Of a stretch of 64,000 bases of DNA, positions 29,150 through 62,945 are shown in pieces. The translations under genes and the position numbers were made by a program. Each line of letters opens with the position of its first letter. Positions within the stretch are counted from its first letter, which is position 1. Source of the DNA: Tenacibaculum sp. (GTDB lineage: Bacteria; Bacteroidota; Bacteroidia; Flavobacteriales; Flavobacteriaceae); the NCBI GenBank assembly GCA_020629275.1, contig JAHDDQ010000004.1, positions 20,741-84,740 on the forward strand, given 5' to 3'. The notes below the pieces were generated by a model that was not told the origin of the DNA, did no database searches, and was given only the letters and a program-made list of their open reading frames with translations.

Positions 29150-29195
29150 CTACCTTTTTGTGTAGTATAGAATAAATGAATGGGAATTATTTTTG
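29150..29195 (+). promoter_or_regulatory. LuxR-box-like dyad and promoter of thiF
   Basis: The 16-bp dyad CTACCTTTTTGTGTAG (29150-29165) is followed after exactly 22 bp by TATTTTTG (29188-29195), a perfect TAnnTTTG. The dyad centre falls near -41 relative to the predicted transcript start, where class II activators bind. The same arrangement occurs at 30802-30847 and 31540-31585. No canonical TTTG is seen about 20 nt upstream of the -7, which fits activator dependence. Confidence 0.82.
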
Positions 29196-29212
29196 CATAA
29201 AAATATAATCCC

Positions 29213-29968
29213 ATGCAAAACAGATATAATAAAAATAATGTTTACCTCTCCGAAAAAGAGCAAGAGCAGATAAAGAATTGCCCAATAATAATTGTGGGTG
29301 CTGGTATAGGAAGTGTAATAGCTGAGTGTGCTTTGCGATTTGGATTTGAAAATATTACAATAGTAGATACAGAGAAAGTAAAGTTGTCTAATTTGAGTCA
29401 TCAAAACTACACAGAAGACGATATAAATACTAATGCAGTAGAAGCTATTAAAAAAAGACTGATAGCAATTAATAAGGATGCGAAAATTAAAGTGTATGAT
29501 AATCCTTTAACGGAAGATATTACAGTATCATTAATAAAAGATCACAAAATAGCAATTAATGCTTTAGATTTCACCTCAGAAATTCCATTAGAATTTGATC
29601 GAACCTGTCAACAAAAAAGTATTCCAGTATTGCATCCGTACAATTTAGGATGGGGAGGTTTGGTAACTATTATAGCACCAGATGGATTGGCGCTAGACTT
29701 ACTTGAAAAGCCTGAAGAAATGTTAAACGAGATTCAAATAGCAGAATATGTTTCAAGTTATTTGAAATTCTGGAGAACACCTCACATTTGGATCGATGAA
29801 GTTTTGGAGAAATATAAAGATAAAGAAGATACTTTTCCTCCAGCCCAACTATCCATAGCTTCTTGGACTGTAGCATCTATGTGTACTCATTTACTATTTA
29901 ATATTGTTACCAACAAAGAATTTAAAAAGTTCCCAGAGTTTTACTTATCAACAGTAATGAATGGTTAG
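29213..29968 (+). CDS. ThiF/E1-like adenylyltransferase
   Basis: The 251-residue protein has the ThiF/MoeB/E1 nucleotide fold: IIIVGAGIGSVIAECALRFG, the acidic VDTEKVKLSNLSHQNY, and AINALDFTSEIPLEF. Enzymes of this family adenylate a C-terminal carboxylate or similar group. The zinc CxxC pairs of MoeB and ThiF are not evident. Its promoter carries the same 16-bp box as the acyl-synthase and peptide promoters, so it very likely belongs to that pathway, either in signal synthesis or peptide modification. It is convergent with the LuxR gene, overlapping it by 4 bp. Confidence 0.82.
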   Translation: MQNRYNKNNVYLSEKEQEQIKNCPIIIVGAGIGSVIAECALRFGFENITIVDTEKVKLSNLSHQNYTEDDINTNAVEAIKKRLIAINKDAKIKVYDNPLTEDITVSLIKDHKIAINALDFTSEIPLEFDRTCQQKSIPVLHPYNLGWGGLVTIIAPDGLALDLLEKPEEMLNEIQIAEYVSSYLKFWRTPHIWIDEVLEKYKDKEDTFPPAQLSIASWTVASMCTHLLFNIVTNKEFKKFPEFYLSTVMNG

Positions 29969-30723
29969 ATCAACTTATTATTTGTTGCGTAAGCTATAGC
30001 CTCAGAAATATTGGCGACTTCTAACTTGTCAAATAATTTTTTTCTATGGAACTTAACCGTATCTGGCGAAACAAAAATAGAATTAGCTACCTCGTTAATA
30101 GTATATCCTCTAGAGGAATATTGTAATATTTCTTTTTCTCTACTGGTTAACTTTATTTTCTCCGTAGCTTTCCAGAAGTCCCCTTCTAAATCATATTTAA
30201 AAATCTTATTATCTCCTTTCTTATAAATTTTAATATTACCCGATTGTTGTTCAGCCGATAATGATATGATACAAATAGCTTTCCATATTTGTCCATTAGC
30301 TGTTAGAAATAAGGGAGTTAACTTTTGGTTGATTAAAATAACTTTACCTTCTTGGTTCTTCAAATTAAAGTCATACGAAATAGTATGCCACTTACGATCC
30401 TCAACAGGAATTTTATCATAAAAATCAAACCCTATGGTATTAATCTTTAATAATAAATCTAAGTCAGATTTGGTAACATATTTGAAGTAAAAGGAATACC
30501 CCATTTCTTTTACTTCTTCAGCTGAATGTCCACAAAGAAACAAAGGGTTATCTGAAACATATTCAAATCCTTTCTTCTGATAATCGATAACATAAATGCT
30601 TTTATAGGTGGTCCTAGCAAAAGCCTTTATAGGTTCTAAATAATCAGAAGTCTGATTTTGCTCATCATTAGAAATACTTCCCACAGTATTTTTAAATGAG
30701 AAGAAATCATTTATATCGGTCAT
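29965..30723 (-). CDS. PAS-LuxR family transcriptional regulator
   Basis: The start chosen is the ATG at 30723 (MTDINDFFSFKN), 252 residues; an upstream TTG at 30771 would add a Cys-rich extension that overlaps the promoter. Residues about 45-165 look like a PAS sensor (IYVIDYQKKGFEYVSDN). Residues about 190-250 are a LuxR/FixJ helix-turn-helix (LTSREKEILQYSSRGYTINE, SPDTVKFHRKKLFDKL). There is no receiver domain. It is divergent from the acyl-synthase gene. It is the best candidate to bind the three 16-bp dyads around it. Confidence 0.9.
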   Translation of the reverse strand: MTDINDFFSFKNTVGSISNDEQNQTSDYLEPIKAFARTTYKSIYVIDYQKKGFEYVSDNPLFLCGHSAEEVKEMGYSFYFKYVTKSDLDLLLKINTIGFDFYDKIPVEDRKWHTISYDFNLKNQEGKVILINQKLTPLFLTANGQIWKAICIISLSAEQQSGNIKIYKKGDNKIFKYDLEGDFWKATEKIKLTSREKEILQYSSRGYTINEVANSIFVSPDTVKFHRKKLFDKLEVANISEAIAYATNNKLI

Positions 30724-30739
30724 AACGGAGGAGTTTACA

Positions 30740-30772
30740 CAAATATAACTTTTTTTATAAAAACTACACAAA
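30740..30772 (-). promoter_or_regulatory. Promoter of the luxR-type gene
   Basis: The minus strand reads TTTG (30772-30769), a 21-nt spacer, then TATATTTG (30747-30740). The -33 element lies inside the distal dyad at 30764-30779, so the bound regulator could repress its own gene. Confidence 0.68.
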
Positions 30773-30847
30773 CGGGTGGTTTTTACTTAATATGCTGGTA
30801 ACTACACCTTTGTGTAATATATCCACTAGCATCTCTAGGTAGTTTTG
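30764..30847 (+). promoter_or_regulatory. Tandem LuxR-box-like dyads and promoter of the acyl-synthase gene
   Basis: The proximal dyad CTACACCTTTGTGTAA (30802-30817) is followed after 22 bp by TAGTTTTG (30840-30847). A degenerate distal dyad CTACACAAACGGGTGG (30764-30779) starts exactly 38 bp upstream of the proximal one. The same 38-bp and 22-bp spacings recur at the peptide operon promoter. Confidence 0.82.
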
Positions 30848-30865
30848 AGAGTAAAATATACCATT

Positions 30866-31555
30866 ATGATACTAGCTAAAAACTATTTAGGAAAACTTAA
30901 TTCAACTCAAATATTTGACCTTGCAAAATTCGTTGTAGATGAAAATTTTAGTCATCATGCAGATAACAATTTACCAGAAGAGTATGTAAATGACATAAAA
31001 TCTATCTGTAATGAAGAAGCAAAGTATTATAATGATTCTGAAATTTATGTTTCTAAAAATGATTTAGGCTCGATATCTGGAGCAATACGTGTTTTAAAAT
31101 GGAATTACATTGATGAATTACCAATACAAAAGATTTTTGGAATAAATCCCTTACTTGCTTTAAAAAGTCCTAAAATAAACGATATATATCATATAGGGCG
31201 ATTTGCTATTAGTAAGAATACTACGGATAAAAATTTATTTAAAAAATTAATGGTATTAGCTATAACTCCAATTTGTAAGGAAGAAGGAAATATAGCTTTT
31301 GCAGAATGTGATAGTAAACTACTAAGAATACTTAATCTTTTAGGTATTAAAACACATGTTATTGGTGATTCAATAGAATATTTAGGTTCAGAAACTATTC
31401 CAGTAGCAATGACTTCAGAAGGTTTAATGAACTTTTATAATAAGTACAAATATCTGGTTTCAGAAGAGGTCATAACACCAAATAATGAAGAAACGTACAC
31501 ACTACCTAAAAGTGTAGTTTTCAATGGTTCAAACCAAAGCTACCCTTTAGTGTAG
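30866..31555 (+). CDS. FeeM/LuxI-like acyl-transfer enzyme (GNAT fold), probable signal synthase
   Basis: The start chosen is the ATG at 30866 (MILAKNYLGKLN), 229 residues; a TTG at 30845 lies inside the -7 element. The layout resembles N-acyl amino acid synthases and acyl-homoserine-lactone synthases: AIRVLKWN, then IYHIGRFAISK (ExxRFAV-like), LFKKLMVLAITPICKEEG and AECDSKLLRILNLLGIKTHV. Such enzymes join an acyl chain to an amino acid. It sits beside a LuxR regulator whose probable box is in its promoter, as in autoinduction circuits. Alternatively it could acylate the Lys-rich peptides encoded downstream. Its last codons form two further boxes. Confidence 0.78.
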   Translation: MILAKNYLGKLNSTQIFDLAKFVVDENFSHHADNNLPEEYVNDIKSICNEEAKYYNDSEIYVSKNDLGSISGAIRVLKWNYIDELPIQKIFGINPLLALKSPKINDIYHIGRFAISKNTTDKNLFKKLMVLAITPICKEEGNIAFAECDSKLLRILNLLGIKTHVIGDSIEYLGSETIPVAMTSEGLMNFYNKYKYLVSEEVITPNNEETYTLPKSVVFNGSNQSYPLV

Positions 31556-31585
31556 TAATGACTAGGGAGTTAAAAGTTAGCTTTG
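31502..31585 (+). promoter_or_regulatory. Tandem LuxR-box-like dyads and promoter of the peptide operon
   Basis: The distal dyad CTACCTAAAAGTGTAG (31502-31517) and proximal dyad CTACCCTTTAGTGTAG (31540-31555) start 38 bp apart. The proximal dyad is 22 bp upstream of TAGCTTTG (31578-31585). Both lie inside the 3' end of the acyl-synthase gene, whose stop codon is the last three bases of the proximal dyad. The predicted 5' leader to the first peptide is about 115 nt. Confidence 0.82.
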
Positions 31586-31706: not shown

Positions 31707-31844
31707 ATGAAAAATTCAAATCCAGAAAACTTCTTAGACACACAAGAATTATCAGCATTGGAAAACGAAACTGTAACAGGAGGAGCAGACGCAGTTGACG
31801 TGGAAGTTAAAAAAGAGAAAAAGAAGGAAAAAGCTTCAAACTAA
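31707..31844 (+). CDS. Double-glycine leader peptide 1 (45 aa)
   Basis: This is the first of six tandem small genes. The leader is MKN followed by NPENFLDTQELSALENETV and TGG, a double-glycine site as cut by C39 peptidases, with Leu at -12 and a hydrophobic residue at -4. The core ADAVDVEVKKEKKKEKASN is short, acidic then Lys-rich, with no Cys. The C39 exporter encoded 2.7 kb downstream is the expected processing partner. The product could be a modified peptide, a signal or a bacteriocin; homology does not decide. Confidence 0.85.
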   Translation: MKNSNPENFLDTQELSALENETVTGGADAVDVEVKKEKKKEKASN

Positions 31845-31868
31845 TTACTAACCAATAAACTTTAAAAA

Positions 31869-32003
31869 ATGAAAAATTTAAATCCAGAAAATTTCTTAGA
31901 TACACAAGAATTATCAGCATTGGAAAATGAAACTTTAACAGGTGGAGCTGATAATGTAGACGAAATCGTAGTAGAGAAAAAGAAAGTTAAAAAAAGAAAA
32001 TAA
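31869..32003 (+). CDS. Double-glycine leader peptide 2 (44 aa)
   Basis: It has the same leader as peptide 1 with two changes (MKNL start, ETLTGG end), 24 bp after the stop of peptide 1. The core ADNVDEIVVEKKKVKKRK keeps the acidic-to-Lys/Arg layout and ends KKRK. Nucleotide identity of the leader region to its neighbours is very high, showing tandem duplication with divergence mainly in the core. Confidence 0.85.
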   Translation: MKNLNPENFLDTQELSALENETLTGGADNVDEIVVEKKKVKKRK

Positions 32004-32016
32004 TTAATTAAGAAAG

Positions 32017-32148
32017 ATGAAAAATTCAAGCCCAGAAAACTTCTTAGATACACAAGAATTATCAGCATTAGAAAACGAAACTGTAACAGGTGGTAATGCT
32101 GTTGAAGATGTAAAAGTAGAAAAGAAGAAAGAAAAAAAGAGAAAATAA
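32017..32148 (+). CDS. Double-glycine leader peptide 3 (43 aa)
   Basis: Leader MKNSSPENFLDTQELSALEN then ETVTGG. Core NAVEDVKVEKKKEKKRK, again acidic then Lys/Arg-rich and ending KKRK. It begins 13 bp after peptide 2. It has no Cys, Ser or Thr in the core, so lanthionine or sactipeptide chemistry is excluded for this copy. Confidence 0.85.
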   Translation: MKNSSPENFLDTQELSALENETVTGGNAVEDVKVEKKKEKKRK

Positions 32149-32174
32149 TAACTAACCAATAAATATTTAAAAAG

Positions 32175-32363
32175 ATGAAAAATTTAAATCCAGAAAATTT
32201 CTTAGACACACAAGAATTATCAGCATTAGAAAACGAAACTGTAACAGGAGGATCTGCGGCTGTAGATGATGTAATAGTTAAGAAAGAGAAGAAGAAAGAA
32301 TTTCTTAATAACTCTTTTAAAAGGGGTGGTCATTTCTCAGAAACACCCCTTTTTATTTTCTAA
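32175..32363 (+). CDS. Double-glycine leader peptide 4, extended C-terminus (62 aa)
   Basis: The leader matches peptides 1-3 (LDTQELSALENETVTGG). The core begins SAAVDDVIVKKEKKKE like its siblings, but instead of stopping it continues FLNNSFKRGGHFSETPLFIF. The extra 20 residues are encoded by the downstream terminator hairpin. In another frame a TAATAA pair lies right after the Lys run (at about 32304-32310), so a small indel in the purine-rich stretch most likely removed the stop. Confidence 0.8.
   Translation: MKNLNPENFLDTQELSALENETVTGGSAAVDDVIVKKEKKKEFLNNSFKRGGHFSETPLFIF
32319..32355 (+). terminator. Internal terminator in the peptide operon
   Basis: AAAAGGGGTG (32319-32328) pairs perfectly over 10 bp with CACCCCTTTT (32344-32353), 15-nt loop, followed by T-rich sequence. 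It lies inside the extended 3' end of peptide 4. Partial termination here would give more transcript for peptides 1-4 than for peptides 5-6, the oxygenase and the exporter. Confidence 0.8.
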
Positions 32364-32381
32364 TTAAACAAAGAAAAGGAT

Positions 32382-32534
32382 ATGAAAAACAAAGAAACCC
32401 CAGAAAGTATTTTAGAAACACAAGTGCTAACAGCCCTGGAAAATAGATGCTTAAAAGGAGGTAATGCTACCGAAGATAATTTAACAACAAAATGTAAATG
32501 CAAATGCAAATGTAAGGAGGAAGCTACTTCTTAA
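32382..32534 (+). CDS. Double-glycine leader peptide 5, Cys-Lys repeat core (50 aa)
   Basis: The leader is a divergent relative of peptides 1-4 (PESILETQVLTALENRCLKGG), with Cys at -5. The core NATEDNLTTKCKCKCKCKEE contains four alternating Cys-Lys pairs, which no sibling has. The regular CK spacing could bind metal, form disulfides on export, or be the substrate for a Cys modification. It lies after the internal terminator and 18 bp beyond the stop of peptide 4. Confidence 0.82.
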   Translation: MKNKETPESILETQVLTALENRCLKGGNATEDNLTTKCKCKCKCKEEATS

Positions 32535-32583
32535 ATAACACGTATTTATTATAAAACCAACAAATCCTATAAAACTCAAAAAA

Positions 32584-32724
32584 ATGATTAACAAAAAAAT
32601 AAAGCCAGAAGACTTTTTAGATATTCAAGAATTGTCAGCATTAGAATGCTTCAATTTAAAAGGAGGAAAAGATGAAATAGTTCTTAAAAAAGGGTTCAAG
32701 AAAAGAGATCACATTAAACATTAG
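32584..32724 (+). CDS. Double-glycine leader peptide 6 (46 aa)
   Basis: Leader MINKKIKPEDFLDIQELSAL then ECFNLKGG, with Cys at -7. Core KDEIVLKKGFKKRDHIKH is basic and has two His but no Cys. It ends 5 bp before the JmjC oxygenase gene, so it is likely translationally coupled to it, and could be the preferred substrate. Confidence 0.82.
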   Translation: MINKKIKPEDFLDIQELSALECFNLKGGKDEIVLKKGFKKRDHIKH

Positions 32725-32729
32725 AAAAG

Positions 32730-34025
32730 ATGGAAAATAATTTCAATAGAGATTGGTGGCTTTCATTTATCGAAAAAAACCTCTCATTCTCGCAAACACA
32801 GGTATATAAAAATGTGTTTACTAAAGATTTGGTAAGTACATTAAATGAAGGAGTTCGTGAAATGCTTAGATCTAGAATTAATAGGCTAGATATTAATAGC
32901 GGATTCAGGTTGTATATTAATGATAAAGAATTAAGTGATTCTGAAATCAGAAAGGTAATTAAGAATAATAAATTAGGTGAAACTGAAGATATCGAAGCAT
33001 ATTGTAGTCGTGTATTTGGTGAAAAATTCGGAATTATTACCAATTATGGAGAAAAGCATTCTGAGATTTTAGCAGAACATATTCTAAGAACAGTACAACC
33101 ATTGTTTGATATTATAGGAATTCCACCATGGGGCCTAGAGCTAACTACTTTTATTGGAAATTATGGATGGACACCTTTAGGAATTCATACCGATAATAGA
33201 GGAGAAAATGTATTGCACTATCATTTAGGACCTGGTAATAAAAAAATGTACGTATGGGACGAAGAGGTTTACGAAAAGGAAGGAAAAGGAGTTTCAAATA
33301 ACAAGAATGTTGAGCCGCTATTGCCGCATGCTAAAGAATTTGAATTCGGAACTGGAGATTTATATTACATGCCTTGGAATAAACATCATATAGGGTATTC
33401 AGGAGAGTTCTCTGTAGGAGTAACCTTATGGTTCAACAACCCTACTCGATACGATTTTTCTAAGTTGATGATAGAAACTATTCAAAATCTATTTTTGAAG
33501 AATGATCAAAGTATCATAGAAAGTCAAATAGACTACGTTACTAATGAAAATACCTTTTTAGATTTTATTAATACGTTAAATGTTGATAGAGAAACATTAA
33601 ACGCACCATTAGAAGACTTCCTTAAGCATACTTACAACGAGTACAAGAAGTGCTTAATAAGTAATGGAGGATGGCAGAATATACCTTTGAGTCATCATAA
33701 AAAAATAGAAAGTACTAAAGAGTATTTTCCTAATCTAGAAACGAAAAGAGTAAGAACGAATAATCTTTACAAGATCAATACAGAACGAAATGGTGATCGA
33801 TTAGTAATTTATGTTAGAGGAACTAGATTATCATTTAAATATTTTGACGAATTACAAGAAATAATAGACATGTTGAATGTAGGAGAGTCAATAGCTGTTA
33901 TAGATATGATTAATCGATTTGACAGACTGCCTAAAGATGTTGTTTTATACTTTTTAAAAGTTCTCATAAATAACAAAGGAGCTAAAATTGAAGAAGTTGA
34001 ATTAACAGAAGCAGTGTTATGTTAG
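32730..34025 (+). CDS. JmjC/cupin-type Fe(II)/2-oxoglutarate oxygenase
   Basis: The 431-residue protein has a double-stranded beta-helix core with iron ligands HxD in LGIHTDNRG (about residues 153-155) and the distal His in MPWNKHHIGYSG (about 219-220), plus HYHLGPGNKKMYVWD between them. The rest is helical, and the last about 90 residues (LYKINTERNGDRLVIYVRG onward) look like the winged-helix tail of ribosomal-oxygenase-type JmjC enzymes. That family hydroxylates His, Arg or Lys of proteins. In an operon with leader peptides and a C39 exporter it is the obvious candidate tailoring enzyme. It overlaps the next gene by 7 bp. Confidence 0.83.
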   Translation: MENNFNRDWWLSFIEKNLSFSQTQVYKNVFTKDLVSTLNEGVREMLRSRINRLDINSGFRLYINDKELSDSEIRKVIKNNKLGETEDIEAYCSRVFGEKFGIITNYGEKHSEILAEHILRTVQPLFDIIGIPPWGLELTTFIGNYGWTPLGIHTDNRGENVLHYHLGPGNKKMYVWDEEVYEKEGKGVSNNKNVEPLLPHAKEFEFGTGDLYYMPWNKHHIGYSGEFSVGVTLWFNNPTRYDFSKLMIETIQNLFLKNDQSIIESQIDYVTNENTFLDFINTLNVDRETLNAPLEDFLKHTYNEYKKCLISNGGWQNIPLSHHKKIESTKEYFPNLETKRVRTNNLYKINTERNGDRLVIYVRGTRLSFKYFDELQEIIDMLNVGESIAVIDMINRFDRLPKDVVLYFLKVLINNKGAKIEEVELTEAVLC

Positions 34026-34522
34026 ATCATTATGAAATAAAGAAAGAAGGAAAAAACAAATATGTATTCTACAATAAAGAAAATGTAGAATATCAATTAG
34101 TTGTGAAAGTCTCAGGATTACAGTATCAAAATGAGGAAGGTAGCTATAAAAATGTTTTAGAAATCGCTTTAAACTGCGATACCAATACAGCGAATAAAGA
34201 TTATTTAACGGTAAAGACTTTGGCAGCTTTTTGTACCCAAGTAACTAAGCATTACGATGCCGTTTACATGCAAATACATAACCAGCCAGAAATAATAAAT
34301 AATAATAAAATAGAACGAAGAGGTATTTCCAGAATACGACTTTGGAACAGAGTAGTTAGTAAATACTTTAATGATTATATCATGTTAACTAATCTAGTTT
34401 TAGCGCCAAATAGTAATAGTGATTTACTAAGCGTTGTTGTAAAAAAAGACTCTGTTTATTTTAAAAAGGTAGTAGCGAATTTTTACCGCTTCTGTTACCG
34501 TAAAATGTATAAAACCATCTAG
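34019..34522 (+). CDS. Hypothetical protein of the peptide operon (167 aa)
   Basis: I do not recognise this protein with confidence. It has no signal peptide or membrane segment. It is alpha/beta in appearance, with repeated aromatic residues (YEIKKEGKNKYVFYNKENVEY) and a central block ISRIRLWNRVVSKYFNDYI reminiscent of small Bacteroidota families in which a basic R-x-R-L-W/Y motif precedes an aromatic helix. Overlap with the oxygenase gene and 4-bp spacing to the exporter point to a role in peptide binding, modification or immunity. Confidence 0.6.
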   Translation: MLDHYEIKKEGKNKYVFYNKENVEYQLVVKVSGLQYQNEEGSYKNVLEIALNCDTNTANKDYLTVKTLAAFCTQVTKHYDAVYMQIHNQPEIINNNKIERRGISRIRLWNRVVSKYFNDYIMLTNLVLAPNSNSDLLSVVVKKDSVYFKKVVANFYRFCYRKMYKTI

Positions 34523-62285: not shown

Positions 62286-62945
62286 ATGAAAGATAAAATC
62301 GAAGTTCACATAGCTGATGATCATAAGATTGTGATAGACGGAGTATCAGCTTTAATAAATACGGAGAGTGACATCGAGATAGTTGGTTATTCATTAACAG
62401 GGAAAAATGTTATTGAATGGTTTAAAAAAAATAAAGCCGACGTTTTAATTCTCGATATTAATATGCCAGAGTTAGATGGAATAGGCGTTTTGAAAACATT
62501 TAAAACAAGAAGCTTCCAACAGAATACAATTATATTATCTGGCTTAAGCGATCCGAAAATTGTTCAAGAGATGATCGCTTTAGGAGCGAAGGGATTCATA
62601 GAAAAAGGATCAGCTAGCGAACACATTATAAAAGCTATAAGAGCAGTTGCAAATGGAGAGCAGTATTATAGCGAAGAAATTAAAAACAGTCTGTTCGACT
62701 TGTATGTAACAGGAGCTAAAACAGACGAAGCAATAAAGAGTAGTGTGGTTACAGAACCACTTACGGACAGAGAAATAGAAGTTCTTAAATTGATAACAAA
62801 AGAACACAGTACGTCAGAAATAGCTGACAAATTAGACATAACAATAAAAACCGTCGAAACACACAGACGAAGTTTATATAAAAAAATTAAAGTAAAAAAT
62901 GTAGTAGGTTTGGCAATATACGCTGTTAAAAATAACATAGTTTAA
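62286..62945 (+). CDS. NarL/FixJ-type response regulator
   Basis: The 219-residue protein has a receiver domain (acidic pocket HIADDHKIVIDG, phosphate-accepting Asp in VLILDINMPELDG, Lys in KGFIEKGSA) and a C-terminal LuxR-type helix-turn-helix (EPLTDREIEVLKLITKEHST, LDITIKTVETHRRSLYKKI). The dyad array in its own promoter suggests autoregulation. A sensor kinase is not seen, but the secreted protein gene at the right edge may be its sensor. Confidence 0.93.
   Translation: MKDKIEVHIADDHKIVIDGVSALINTESDIEIVGYSLTGKNVIEWFKKNKADVLILDINMPELDGIGVLKTFKTRSFQQNTIILSGLSDPKIVQEMIALGAKGFIEKGSASEHIIKAIRAVANGEQYYSEEIKNSLFDLYVTGAKTDEAIKSSVVTEPLTDREIEVLKLITKEHSTSEIADKLDITIKTVETHRRSLYKKIKVKNVVGLAIYAVKNNIV

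What the first reader, a model, noticed from the sequence alone, without database searches (positions are those of the whole stretch)
29150..31585. Three promoters share a 16-bp dyad at exactly 22 bp from the -7 element
Seen: CTACCTTTTTGTGTAG at 29150 (thiF), CTACACCTTTGTGTAA at 30802 (acyl synthase) and CTACCCTTTAGTGTAG at 31540 (peptide operon) are each followed after exactly 22 bp by TATTTTTG, TAGTTTTG and TAGCTTTG, all perfect TAnnTTTG. Dyad centres fall near -41, the usual place for LuxR-type activators. The only DNA-binding gene between them is the PAS-LuxR. Chance placement of three such pairs with equal spacing in 2.4 kb is very unlikely. Inferred: an autoinducing regulon that ties thiF and the acyl synthase to the peptide operon.
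Basis: partly seen in the sequence, partly recalled or inferred. Interest (0 to 1): 0.95.

Follow-up and report, generated by a model that had tools for sequence, protein, structure and literature searches.

The report
Promoter switch of a Bacteroidota signalling cassette
Three neighbouring promoters in a flavobacterial genome carry the same 16-base site exactly 22 bases before the promoter's core element, and the same rule recurs beside the same regulator gene in dozens of relatives; it is likely the on-switch of a recently described bacterial cell-to-cell signalling system, which would turn on its own signal-making genes together with a predicted secreted-peptide operon.

Summary
CTAC-N6-GTGTAR followed after exactly 22 bp by TAnnTTTG occurs three times in the window (0 in 100 shuffles) and, without mismatch, nowhere else in the 4.1-Mb assembly. 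It belongs to a conserved thiF / PAS-luxR / acyltransferase cassette. Of 80 loci fetched with the acyltransferase, 78 carry the luxR and 66 a thiF; the composite stands before the acyltransferase in 73 of 79. In 397 family genomes the composite tracks the regulator (14 of 20 with it, 7 of 377 without). Given the published minus-7 position the dyad is centred at a predicted -42.5. The cassette matches the N-acyl-cyclolysine (ACL) signalling system published in 2025 (seen through a review; primary paper not held), so the system is known. Added here: a second operator 38 bp upstream at many acyltransferase and cargo promoters but at no thiF promoter; operators written inside the end of the acyltransferase gene, which explain its conserved, predicted-disordered tail; unlinked targets (protease and peptide operons); and a window ThiF lacking ATP-site residues invariant in its relatives. 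Binding, signal and expression are untested.

The parts
29150..29165 (+). Operator (16-bp dyad) of the thiF promoter; single, no distal partner found
29188..29195 (+). TATTTTTG minus-7 element, 22 bp from the dyad, 17 bp before the thiF ATG
   Evidence: consensus TAnnTTTG from PMC9723704 (passage)
29213..29968 (+). ThiF-like E1 adenylyltransferase, 251 aa (probable ACL cyclase, AclA by recall); same family as PDB 9egb/9egc/9egd; carries K7, E54, S62, H63, A75 where relatives have R, D, N, R, K
29965..30723 (-). PAS-LuxR regulator, 252 aa (probable AclR by recall)
30764..30779 (.). Degenerate distal operator CTACACAAACGGGTGG, 38 bp upstream of the acyltransferase operator, between luxR and the acyltransferase gene
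30802..30817 (+). Proximal operator of the acyltransferase promoter
30840..30847 (+). TAGTTTTG minus-7 element, 18 bp before the ATG
30866..31555 (+). LuxI/FeeM-like GNAT-fold N-acyltransferase, 229 aa (probable acylase of the ACL pathway); residues 206-229 predicted disordered
31502..31517 (+). Distal operator of the peptide operon, inside the acyltransferase ORF (encodes LPKSV)
31540..31555 (+). Proximal operator of the peptide operon; includes the acyltransferase stop codon TAG
31578..31585 (+). TAGCTTTG minus-7 element of the peptide operon, 121 bp before the first precursor ATG
31707..32724 (+). Six short ORFs with double-glycine-type leaders (31707, 31869, 32017, 32175, 32382, 32584), the first four lysine-rich and near-repeats of each other
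   Evidence: ORFs; no NCBIfam family above cut-off for any of the six, none in Pfam for the two scanned
32730..34025 (+). JmjC-like protein, 431 aa (weak PF08007 match, below cut-off)
34019..34522 (+). 167-aa protein of unknown family, with relatives in L071 and L109
34527..36725 (+). C39-peptidase ABC transporter (predicted leader cleavage and export)

Best explanation
Window 29150-31585 holds the control core of a conserved thiF / PAS-luxR / acyltransferase cassette, likely a member of the N-acyl-cyclolysine (ACL) signalling system of Bacteroidota, in which the PAS-LuxR protein would bind a 16-bp operator centred at a predicted -42.5 and so switch on thiF, the acyltransferase and the peptide operon together. 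Shown by sequence: the operator, its fixed 22-bp distance to TAnnTTTG, its recurrence at the same places across relatives, and its co-occurrence with this regulator. Inferred: the acyltransferase acylates an amino acid (lysine, if the ACL assignment holds), a ThiF closes the ring at the cost of ATP, the product binds the PAS domain, and the loaded LuxR contacts RNA polymerase as a class II activator; this would be positive feedback. The thiF promoter has one operator, the acyltransferase and cargo promoters often have two, 38 bp apart; this is predicted to give them a steeper or later response. No TTG is seen in the minus-33 region of the three window promoters, which fits promoters that would need the activator.
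For: Three perfect composites, 0 in 100 shuffles, no other perfect one in the assembly. Family scan, 397 genomes, gaps 8-34 bp: 30 of 69 matches lie at 22 bp, none at 18, 19 or 21 and one each at 20, 23 and 24; in the genomes with an acyltransferase relative 19 of 22. In the 80 fetched loci: composite with at most one dyad mismatch and a consensus or near-consensus minus-7 before the acyltransferase in 73 of 79, after it in 36 of 79, before thiF in 34 of 65; perfect in 42, 27, 13; perfect dyads there have TAnnTTT[GA] at 22 bp in 104 of 109 pairs, one-mismatch dyads in 39 of 44. Whole loci: 83 TAnnTTTG at 22 bp, 32 at 60 bp (distal partner), 17 at all other distances up to 60; three scrambled dyads none at 22. 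Perfect composite in 14 of 20 genomes with the regulator, 7 of 377 without (Fisher p 1.8e-16). In 18 of the 19 other regulator-bearing genomes, 46 composites with at most one mismatch against 7 for the backward control. Distal dyads at 37-39 bp: 51 among 75 acyltransferase, 31 among 40 cargo, 0 among 36 thiF promoters. Sigma-A box at -12 to -5 (PMC9723704, passage), giving centre -42.5. The acyltransferase model's best matches are FeeM, TofI and LasI, with MesI, BjaI and ordinary GNAT enzymes close behind; the ThiF family is solved as 9egb-9egd and next nearest to TcdA; the LuxR model resembles 3clo and the PAS quorum receptor VqmA. ACLs in Bacteroidota: review PMC13419125, passages. Natural-product-like cargo types in 63 of 80 loci.
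Against: No binding, expression or chemical data. The primary ACL paper is not held; gene names and the lysine-acylation and cyclization scheme are recalled. The window's own ThiF differs at five positions that are invariant or nearly so in the 119 best homologs, so this copy may not cyclize anything. The composite is missing at 6 of 79 acyltransferase promoters (L092, L121, L127, L132, L135, L137), 43 of 79 places after the acyltransferase and 31 of 65 thiF genes. Three genomes with an intact regulator have none even with one mismatch (G144, G288, G329). Seven genomes without the regulator have a perfect composite: G224 is a thiF with its site near a contig end, four (G027, G254, G101, G319) share one related operon under unknown control, G265 and G213 lie inside coding frames. 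Of the 14, the G297 match lies inside a gene. The loci were chosen by the acyltransferase and are related, so counts are not independent events and the Fisher value is only a guide. Fold matches put ordinary acetyltransferases close behind the signal synthases.
Confidence: 0.85

Rival explanations
1. The acyltransferase and ThiF are tailoring enzymes of the peptide (for example fatty acylation of its lysines), and the LuxR is only a pathway-specific activator without a diffusible autoinducer.
For: The window's first four peptides are lysine-rich, and GNAT-type acylation of ribosomal peptides is known (recalled). The cassette lies beside the peptide operon.
Against: The same acyltransferase and regulator stand beside unrelated cargo: NHLP-leader-type precursors in 25 of 80 loci, NRPS-like proteins in 14, class I lanthipeptide-type precursors in 10. 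Tailoring of one peptide class would not explain that.
Confidence: 0.07
2. The composite is a general flavobacterial promoter type bound by some other, global regulator.
For: Seven genomes without the PAS-LuxR have a perfect composite, four of them before one related operon.
Against: Only three perfect copies in this assembly, all in the cassette; strong association with the regulator.
Confidence: 0.05
3. The window's cassette no longer makes its own signal: the ThiF is a dead or altered enzyme and the cell listens to neighbours' ACLs, or uses the second ThiF-like protein elsewhere in its genome. This concerns only this strain and is compatible with the best explanation.
For: K7, E54, S62, H63, A75 against R (118 of 119, one gap), D, N, R, K (119 of 119 each) in the 119 best homologs; the second ThiF-like gene at G000:C28:30573-31310 keeps D, N, R, K at the last four.
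Against: The ORF is intact, has a perfect composite promoter and keeps D52, N60, Q64, D119; no assay.
Confidence: 0.35

Closest known systems
N-acyl-cyclolysine (ACL) signalling of Bacteroidota (Linares-Otoya et al., Nature 2025; seen only through passages of the review PMC13419125)
   Same: Phylum and presence in a gut member (here Parabacteroides distasonis, L135); by recall also lysine acylation, ATP-dependent cyclization, a dedicated transcription factor, autoinduction and co-localized operons for secreted products
   Different: Signal of this strain unknown; its ThiF lacks conserved ATP-site residues; some targets are unlinked; whether the 22-bp rule and the paired operators are in the paper could not be checked
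LuxI/LuxR acyl-homoserine-lactone quorum sensing of Proteobacteria
   Same: Synthase of similar fold, LuxR-type DNA-binding domain, dyad centred near -42.5 and feedback on the synthase gene (these two recalled for LuxR, predicted here)
   Different: PAS-like sensor instead of an AHL-binding domain, an additional ThiF enzyme, Bacteroidota promoter (TAnnTTTG)
VqmA-DPO quorum receptor of Vibrio
   Same: PAS domain joined to a LuxR-type domain; model match E 3.4e-08
   Different: Other ligand, no LuxI-fold synthase partner, other target site (all recalled)
3clo, putative PAS-LuxR-like regulator of Bacteroides
   Same: Best match of the full model and of the sequence profile
   Different: About 20% identical; named only a putative regulator in the record

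Membership tests
ACL signalling system | ThiF-type cyclase of the solved family | tested here: met
   336 bits to 9egb/9egc; that these entries are the published ACL enzyme is inferred
ACL signalling system | Cyclase with the ATP-site residues conserved in the family | tested here: not met
   Five positions differ in the window copy
ACL signalling system | Acyltransferase of signal-synthase-like fold next to it | tested here: met
ACL signalling system | Dedicated LuxR-type regulator, divergent from the acyltransferase | tested here: met
   Present in the window; 77 of 80 loci divergent within 2 kb
ACL signalling system | Production of an N-acyl-cyclolysine | not testable with these tools
   needs mass spectrometry
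ACL signalling system | Density-dependent autoinduction | not testable with these tools
   promoter anatomy only
LuxI/LuxR AHL quorum sensing | LuxI-family sequence match of the synthase | tested here: not met
   No Pfam family; only a TIGR03694 match of 19.3 bits, cut-off 111.95; similarity is of fold
LuxI/LuxR AHL quorum sensing | Autoinducer-binding domain in the LuxR | tested here: not met
   Only GerE in Pfam; model is PAS-like
Class II activator promoter | Operator at fixed distance centred near -42 | tested here: inconclusive
   Fixed 22 bp met; the centre rests on the box position in F. psychrophilum (PMC9723704), start sites here are not mapped

The most novel reading that the evidence does not exclude
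The 22-bp composite is the readable address of the whole ACL regulon: one operator sets the early cyclase gene, two operators 38 bp apart set a later, cooperative response of the acyltransferase and cargo, and the same address reaches unlinked operons (a secreted subtilase operon in two genomes of this genus, a radical-SAM peptide cluster in G248). In this strain the cyclase has lost its ATP site, so the cell answers a signal it can no longer make: a listener.
Probability: 0.3. Interest if true: 0.8.

Novelty: new variant of a known kind. Interest (0 to 1): 0.55.

Why it matters
The signalling system is known, but an exact sequence rule for its targets would make its regulon countable in Bacteroidota genomes, including gene clusters that do not sit beside the cassette. 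It predicts a two-threshold response from operator number alone, explains a conserved protein tail as DNA in disguise, and offers a natural strain in which receptor and operators are kept while the cyclase looks impaired.

Tried and rejected
Considered and rejected: chance; the bare dyad as a marker (16 against 11 control in the assembly, so it says little without the minus-7 element); LuxR autoregulation by the same geometry (dyad to TAnnTTTG distances toward luxR scatter, with small peaks at 16, 29 and 30 and none at 22), so the receptor gene seems not to follow the rule; direct ACL control of the density-dependent protease of Kordia algicida (PMC3117869, abstract and passages; serine protease AlpA1, PMC10565126, passages): a genome that matches K. 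algicida by coordinates (G353) has perfect composites only in the cassette; its one-mismatch matches elsewhere were not examined.

Literature: ten searches, of which I saw listings and starts of abstracts. No listing pointed to this operator; only the review PMC13419125 named the ACL system. The library is open-access only and the primary paper is not held, so I cannot say the operator is unpublished.

Not followed: the chemistry of the JmjC-like peptide cluster, an own-genome regulon search beyond one mismatch, the PAS ligand pocket.
Full report
Observation. CTACNNNNNNGTGTAR-N22-TANNTTTG has exactly three matches in the 64-kb window and none expected (0.00; 0 of 100 shuffles reach three). In the assembly to which the window belongs (4,137,795 bases, 211 contigs, completeness 89.12, contamination 6.86) the bare dyad occurs 16 times against 11 for the pattern read backwards, so by itself it is not informative; of these 16 only the three window sites have TAnnTTTG at 22 bp. 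With one mismatch two further places appear, control 0.

Spacing. In 397 genomes of the family, the pair with any gap from 8 to 34 bp gave 69 matches, 30 of them at 22 bp, none at 18, 19 or 21 and one each at 20, 23 and 24. In the 13 genomes with a match to the acyltransferase (one, G033, is a decayed frame), 19 of 22 matches lie at 22 bp; in the others 11 of 47. In 80 loci fetched with the acyltransferase alignment (117 relatives found, best 80 kept), perfect dyads in the three promoter regions are followed by TAnnTTT[GA] at 22 bp in 104 of 109 pairs, dyads with one mismatch in 39 of 44. Over the whole loci, 226 perfect dyads give 83 TAnnTTTG at 22 bp, 32 at 60 bp (22 plus 38, the distal partner), 13 at 29-30 bp and 4 at other distances up to 60; three scrambled dyads (1, 6 and 8 occurrences) give none at 22. 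The spacer sequence differs between the window promoters.

Where the sites stand. Composite with at most one dyad mismatch and a consensus or near-consensus minus-7: before the acyltransferase 73 of 79 loci, after it 36 of 79, before thiF 34 of 65; perfect 42, 27, 13. The six acyltransferase promoters without it are L092, L121, L127, L132, L135, L137; the two Hymenobacter ones (L121, L127) have TTTATTTG at the same 22 bp. Where no composite follows the acyltransferase, the cargo may be co-transcribed with it; I did not test that.

Position. In Flavobacterium psychrophilum the sigma-A box TAnnTTTG lies at -12 to -5 (PMC9723704, passage). With 22 bp between, the dyad covers -50 to -35 and is centred at -42.5, the class II place known from LuxR (recalled). 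No TTG lies in the minus-33 region of the three window promoters. This is a prediction: no start site was mapped here.

Paired operators. Among promoters with a proximal composite (window included; minus-7 criterion slightly different), a second dyad with at least 8 of 9 fixed bases lies 37-39 bp upstream 51 times in 75 acyltransferase promoters (45 at exactly 38) and 31 times in 40 cargo promoters (30 at 38), and no second dyad is found 18-109 bp upstream of 36 thiF promoters; three acyltransferase promoters have it at 28 bp, about one helical turn less, and seven further dyads lie at scattered distances. The window shows the same plan: 31502-31517 for the peptide operon, degenerate 30764-30779 for the acyltransferase, none for thiF. 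A different response threshold of the two promoter types is my inference.

Operators inside a gene. Of 80 acyltransferase frames (window plus the 79 loci with a complete frame) 28 end in the dyad, so that GTGTAG or GTGTAA supplies the stop; 24 of these 28 end in TAG against 6 of the other 52. The conserved tail LPKSVV...YxLV is the translation of the two operators; five of the 28 lack the LPKSVV part and the distal dyad (L079, L086, L100, L126, L137). At conserved codons with four or more synonyms the same codon is used in 0.88 of cases in the tail (7 columns, residue conserved at 70% or more) against 0.50 in the body (40 columns, 80% or more), p 7e-5. AlphaFold gives residues 206-229 pLDDT under 50. 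DNA constraint explains the tail better than protein function.

The proteins. The acyltransferase (no Pfam family) models as a GNAT fold (pLDDT 82.2); the best PDB matches are FeeM (N-acyl amino acid synthase), TofI and LasI (AHL synthases), with MesI, BjaI and many ordinary GNAT enzymes close behind. The regulator has a GerE domain and a PAS-like N-terminus; its model (pLDDT 89.9) matches 3clo of Bacteroides, then VqmA with its autoinducer, lower EL222, LasR and RhlR. The ThiF family has solved structures, 9egb, 9egc and 9egd (457 bits for the alignment), and next TcdA at 61 bits, an enzyme that closes a ring with ATP (chemistry recalled).

Known system. A 2026 review (PMC13419125, passages) reports that Linares-Otoya et al. 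(Nature 2025) found N-acyl-cyclolysines in Bacteroidota, widespread in gut and oral samples. The paper is not held. From recall of its abstract: lysine acylation and ATP-dependent cyclization, structural work on AclA, a transcription factor AclR, autoinduction, co-localized operons for diverse secreted molecules. The anatomy here is compatible with each of these; assigning ThiF to AclA, and the acyltransferase to the acylation step, is inference.

Conservation and cargo. Of the 80 loci, 78 have the regulator (77 divergent from the acyltransferase within 2 kb) and 66 a thiF (57 within 3 kb upstream). Downstream genes differ. By similarity clusters named after one scanned member each: NHLP-leader-type precursors in 25 loci, TolC-like plus HlyD-like export genes in 18, NRPS-like proteins in 14 and a NusG-like protein in 16 (12 with both), class I lanthipeptide-type precursors in 10, JmjC-like proteins like the window's in 3, small secreted peptides in 6; 63 of 80 loci have at least one of these types, 17 none. 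The HlyD-like, JmjC-like and small-peptide labels are by eye or by likeness to the window's gene, not by a family scan. Hosts include Tenacibaculum, Kordia, Aquimarina, Zobellia, Flavobacterium, Chryseobacterium, Hymenobacter, Saprospiraceae, Saccharicrinis and Parabacteroides.

Regulator and site go together. 20 of 397 family genomes have the regulator (one decayed, G215). A perfect 22-bp composite is found in 14 of these 20 and in 7 of the other 377 (p 1.8e-16; genomes are related, so this is a guide only). Of the 7, G224 is a thiF with its site near a contig end, four (G027, G254, G101, G319) share one related operon, and G265 and G213 lie inside coding frames. Among the 14, the G297 match lies inside a gene, though a one-mismatch composite stands about 250 bp from its regulator. 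G033, G135 and G396 have the regulator without an acyltransferase beside it and still have a composite near it. With one mismatch, 15 of 18 further regulator-bearing genomes (of 19; G215 left out) have the composite, 46 places against 7 for the backward control.

Unlinked targets. In the window's genome CTACACTTTAGTGTAA with TATCTTAG at 22 bp (one mismatch) stands at C136:50859, before a lipoprotein-like gene and a subtilase with a T9SS sorting tail; in G320, same genus, the homologous pair (31% and 44% identical) has a perfect composite. In G248 a one-mismatch composite (ending in TTTA) stands, about 1.5 Mb from its cassette, before an outer-membrane barrel, a short double-glycine-type peptide, a radical SAM/SPASM-type protein and a C39 ABC transporter. 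In G259 a perfect composite on another contig lies 338 bp before an outer-membrane barrel gene.

The window's ThiF. Against the 119 best homologs (of 983 found) the window copy has K7, E54, S62, H63 and A75 where they have R (118, one gap), D, N, R and K (119 each). By recalled MoeB numbering these include the ATP-contacting R14, R73 and K86. The frame is intact and D52, N60, Q64 and D119 are kept. A 36% identical ThiF-like gene elsewhere in the genome keeps four of the five. The strain may be a listener or may use the other protein; neither was tested.

Verdict. The system is a known kind; the exact promoter rule, operator pairing, in-gene operators, unlinked targets and the altered ThiF are what this analysis adds, with the caveat that the primary paper was not readable here.

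Noticed in passing
window 29213-29968: ThiF ORF intact but with five residues that depart from positions conserved in the 119 best homologs, four of them invariant there.
   Followed up: partly
L148 6562-7320 (G000:C28:30573-31310): A lone second ThiF-like gene, 36% identical, outside any cassette.
   Followed up: partly
L193 4860-7278 (G000:C136): Unlinked lipoprotein-like plus T9SS-tailed subtilase operon behind an acl-type composite; homologous operon in L159 (G320).
   Followed up: yes
L195 5540-12842 (G248): Unlinked cluster of outer-membrane barrel, short peptide, radical SAM protein and C39 transporter behind a one-mismatch composite.
   Followed up: partly
L151, L152, L153, L154: The same 22-bp composite before one related small operon in genomes where this PAS-LuxR was not found: possibly another regulator with the same geometry.
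   Followed up: no
16 of 80 loci, e.g. L115 3126-3647, L081 10747-11268: A NusG-like protein is an early cargo gene, in 12 loci together with NRPS-like proteins; it may act as an antiterminator for a long operon.
   Followed up: no
L064: Kordia algicida OT-1 carries a cassette; its density-dependent protease release had no identified signal in 2011 (PMC3117869, passages).
   Followed up: partly
L094 and L095: Two regulator-acyltransferase cassettes on one contig of Flavobacterium sp. ZT3R18.
   Followed up: no
L135: Cassette in Parabacteroides distasonis followed by genes that look, by eye, like plasmid-partition and recombinase genes, suggesting a mobile element.
   Followed up: no
window 62754-62939: A second LuxR-type DNA-binding domain in the window, matching only in that domain.
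   Followed up: no
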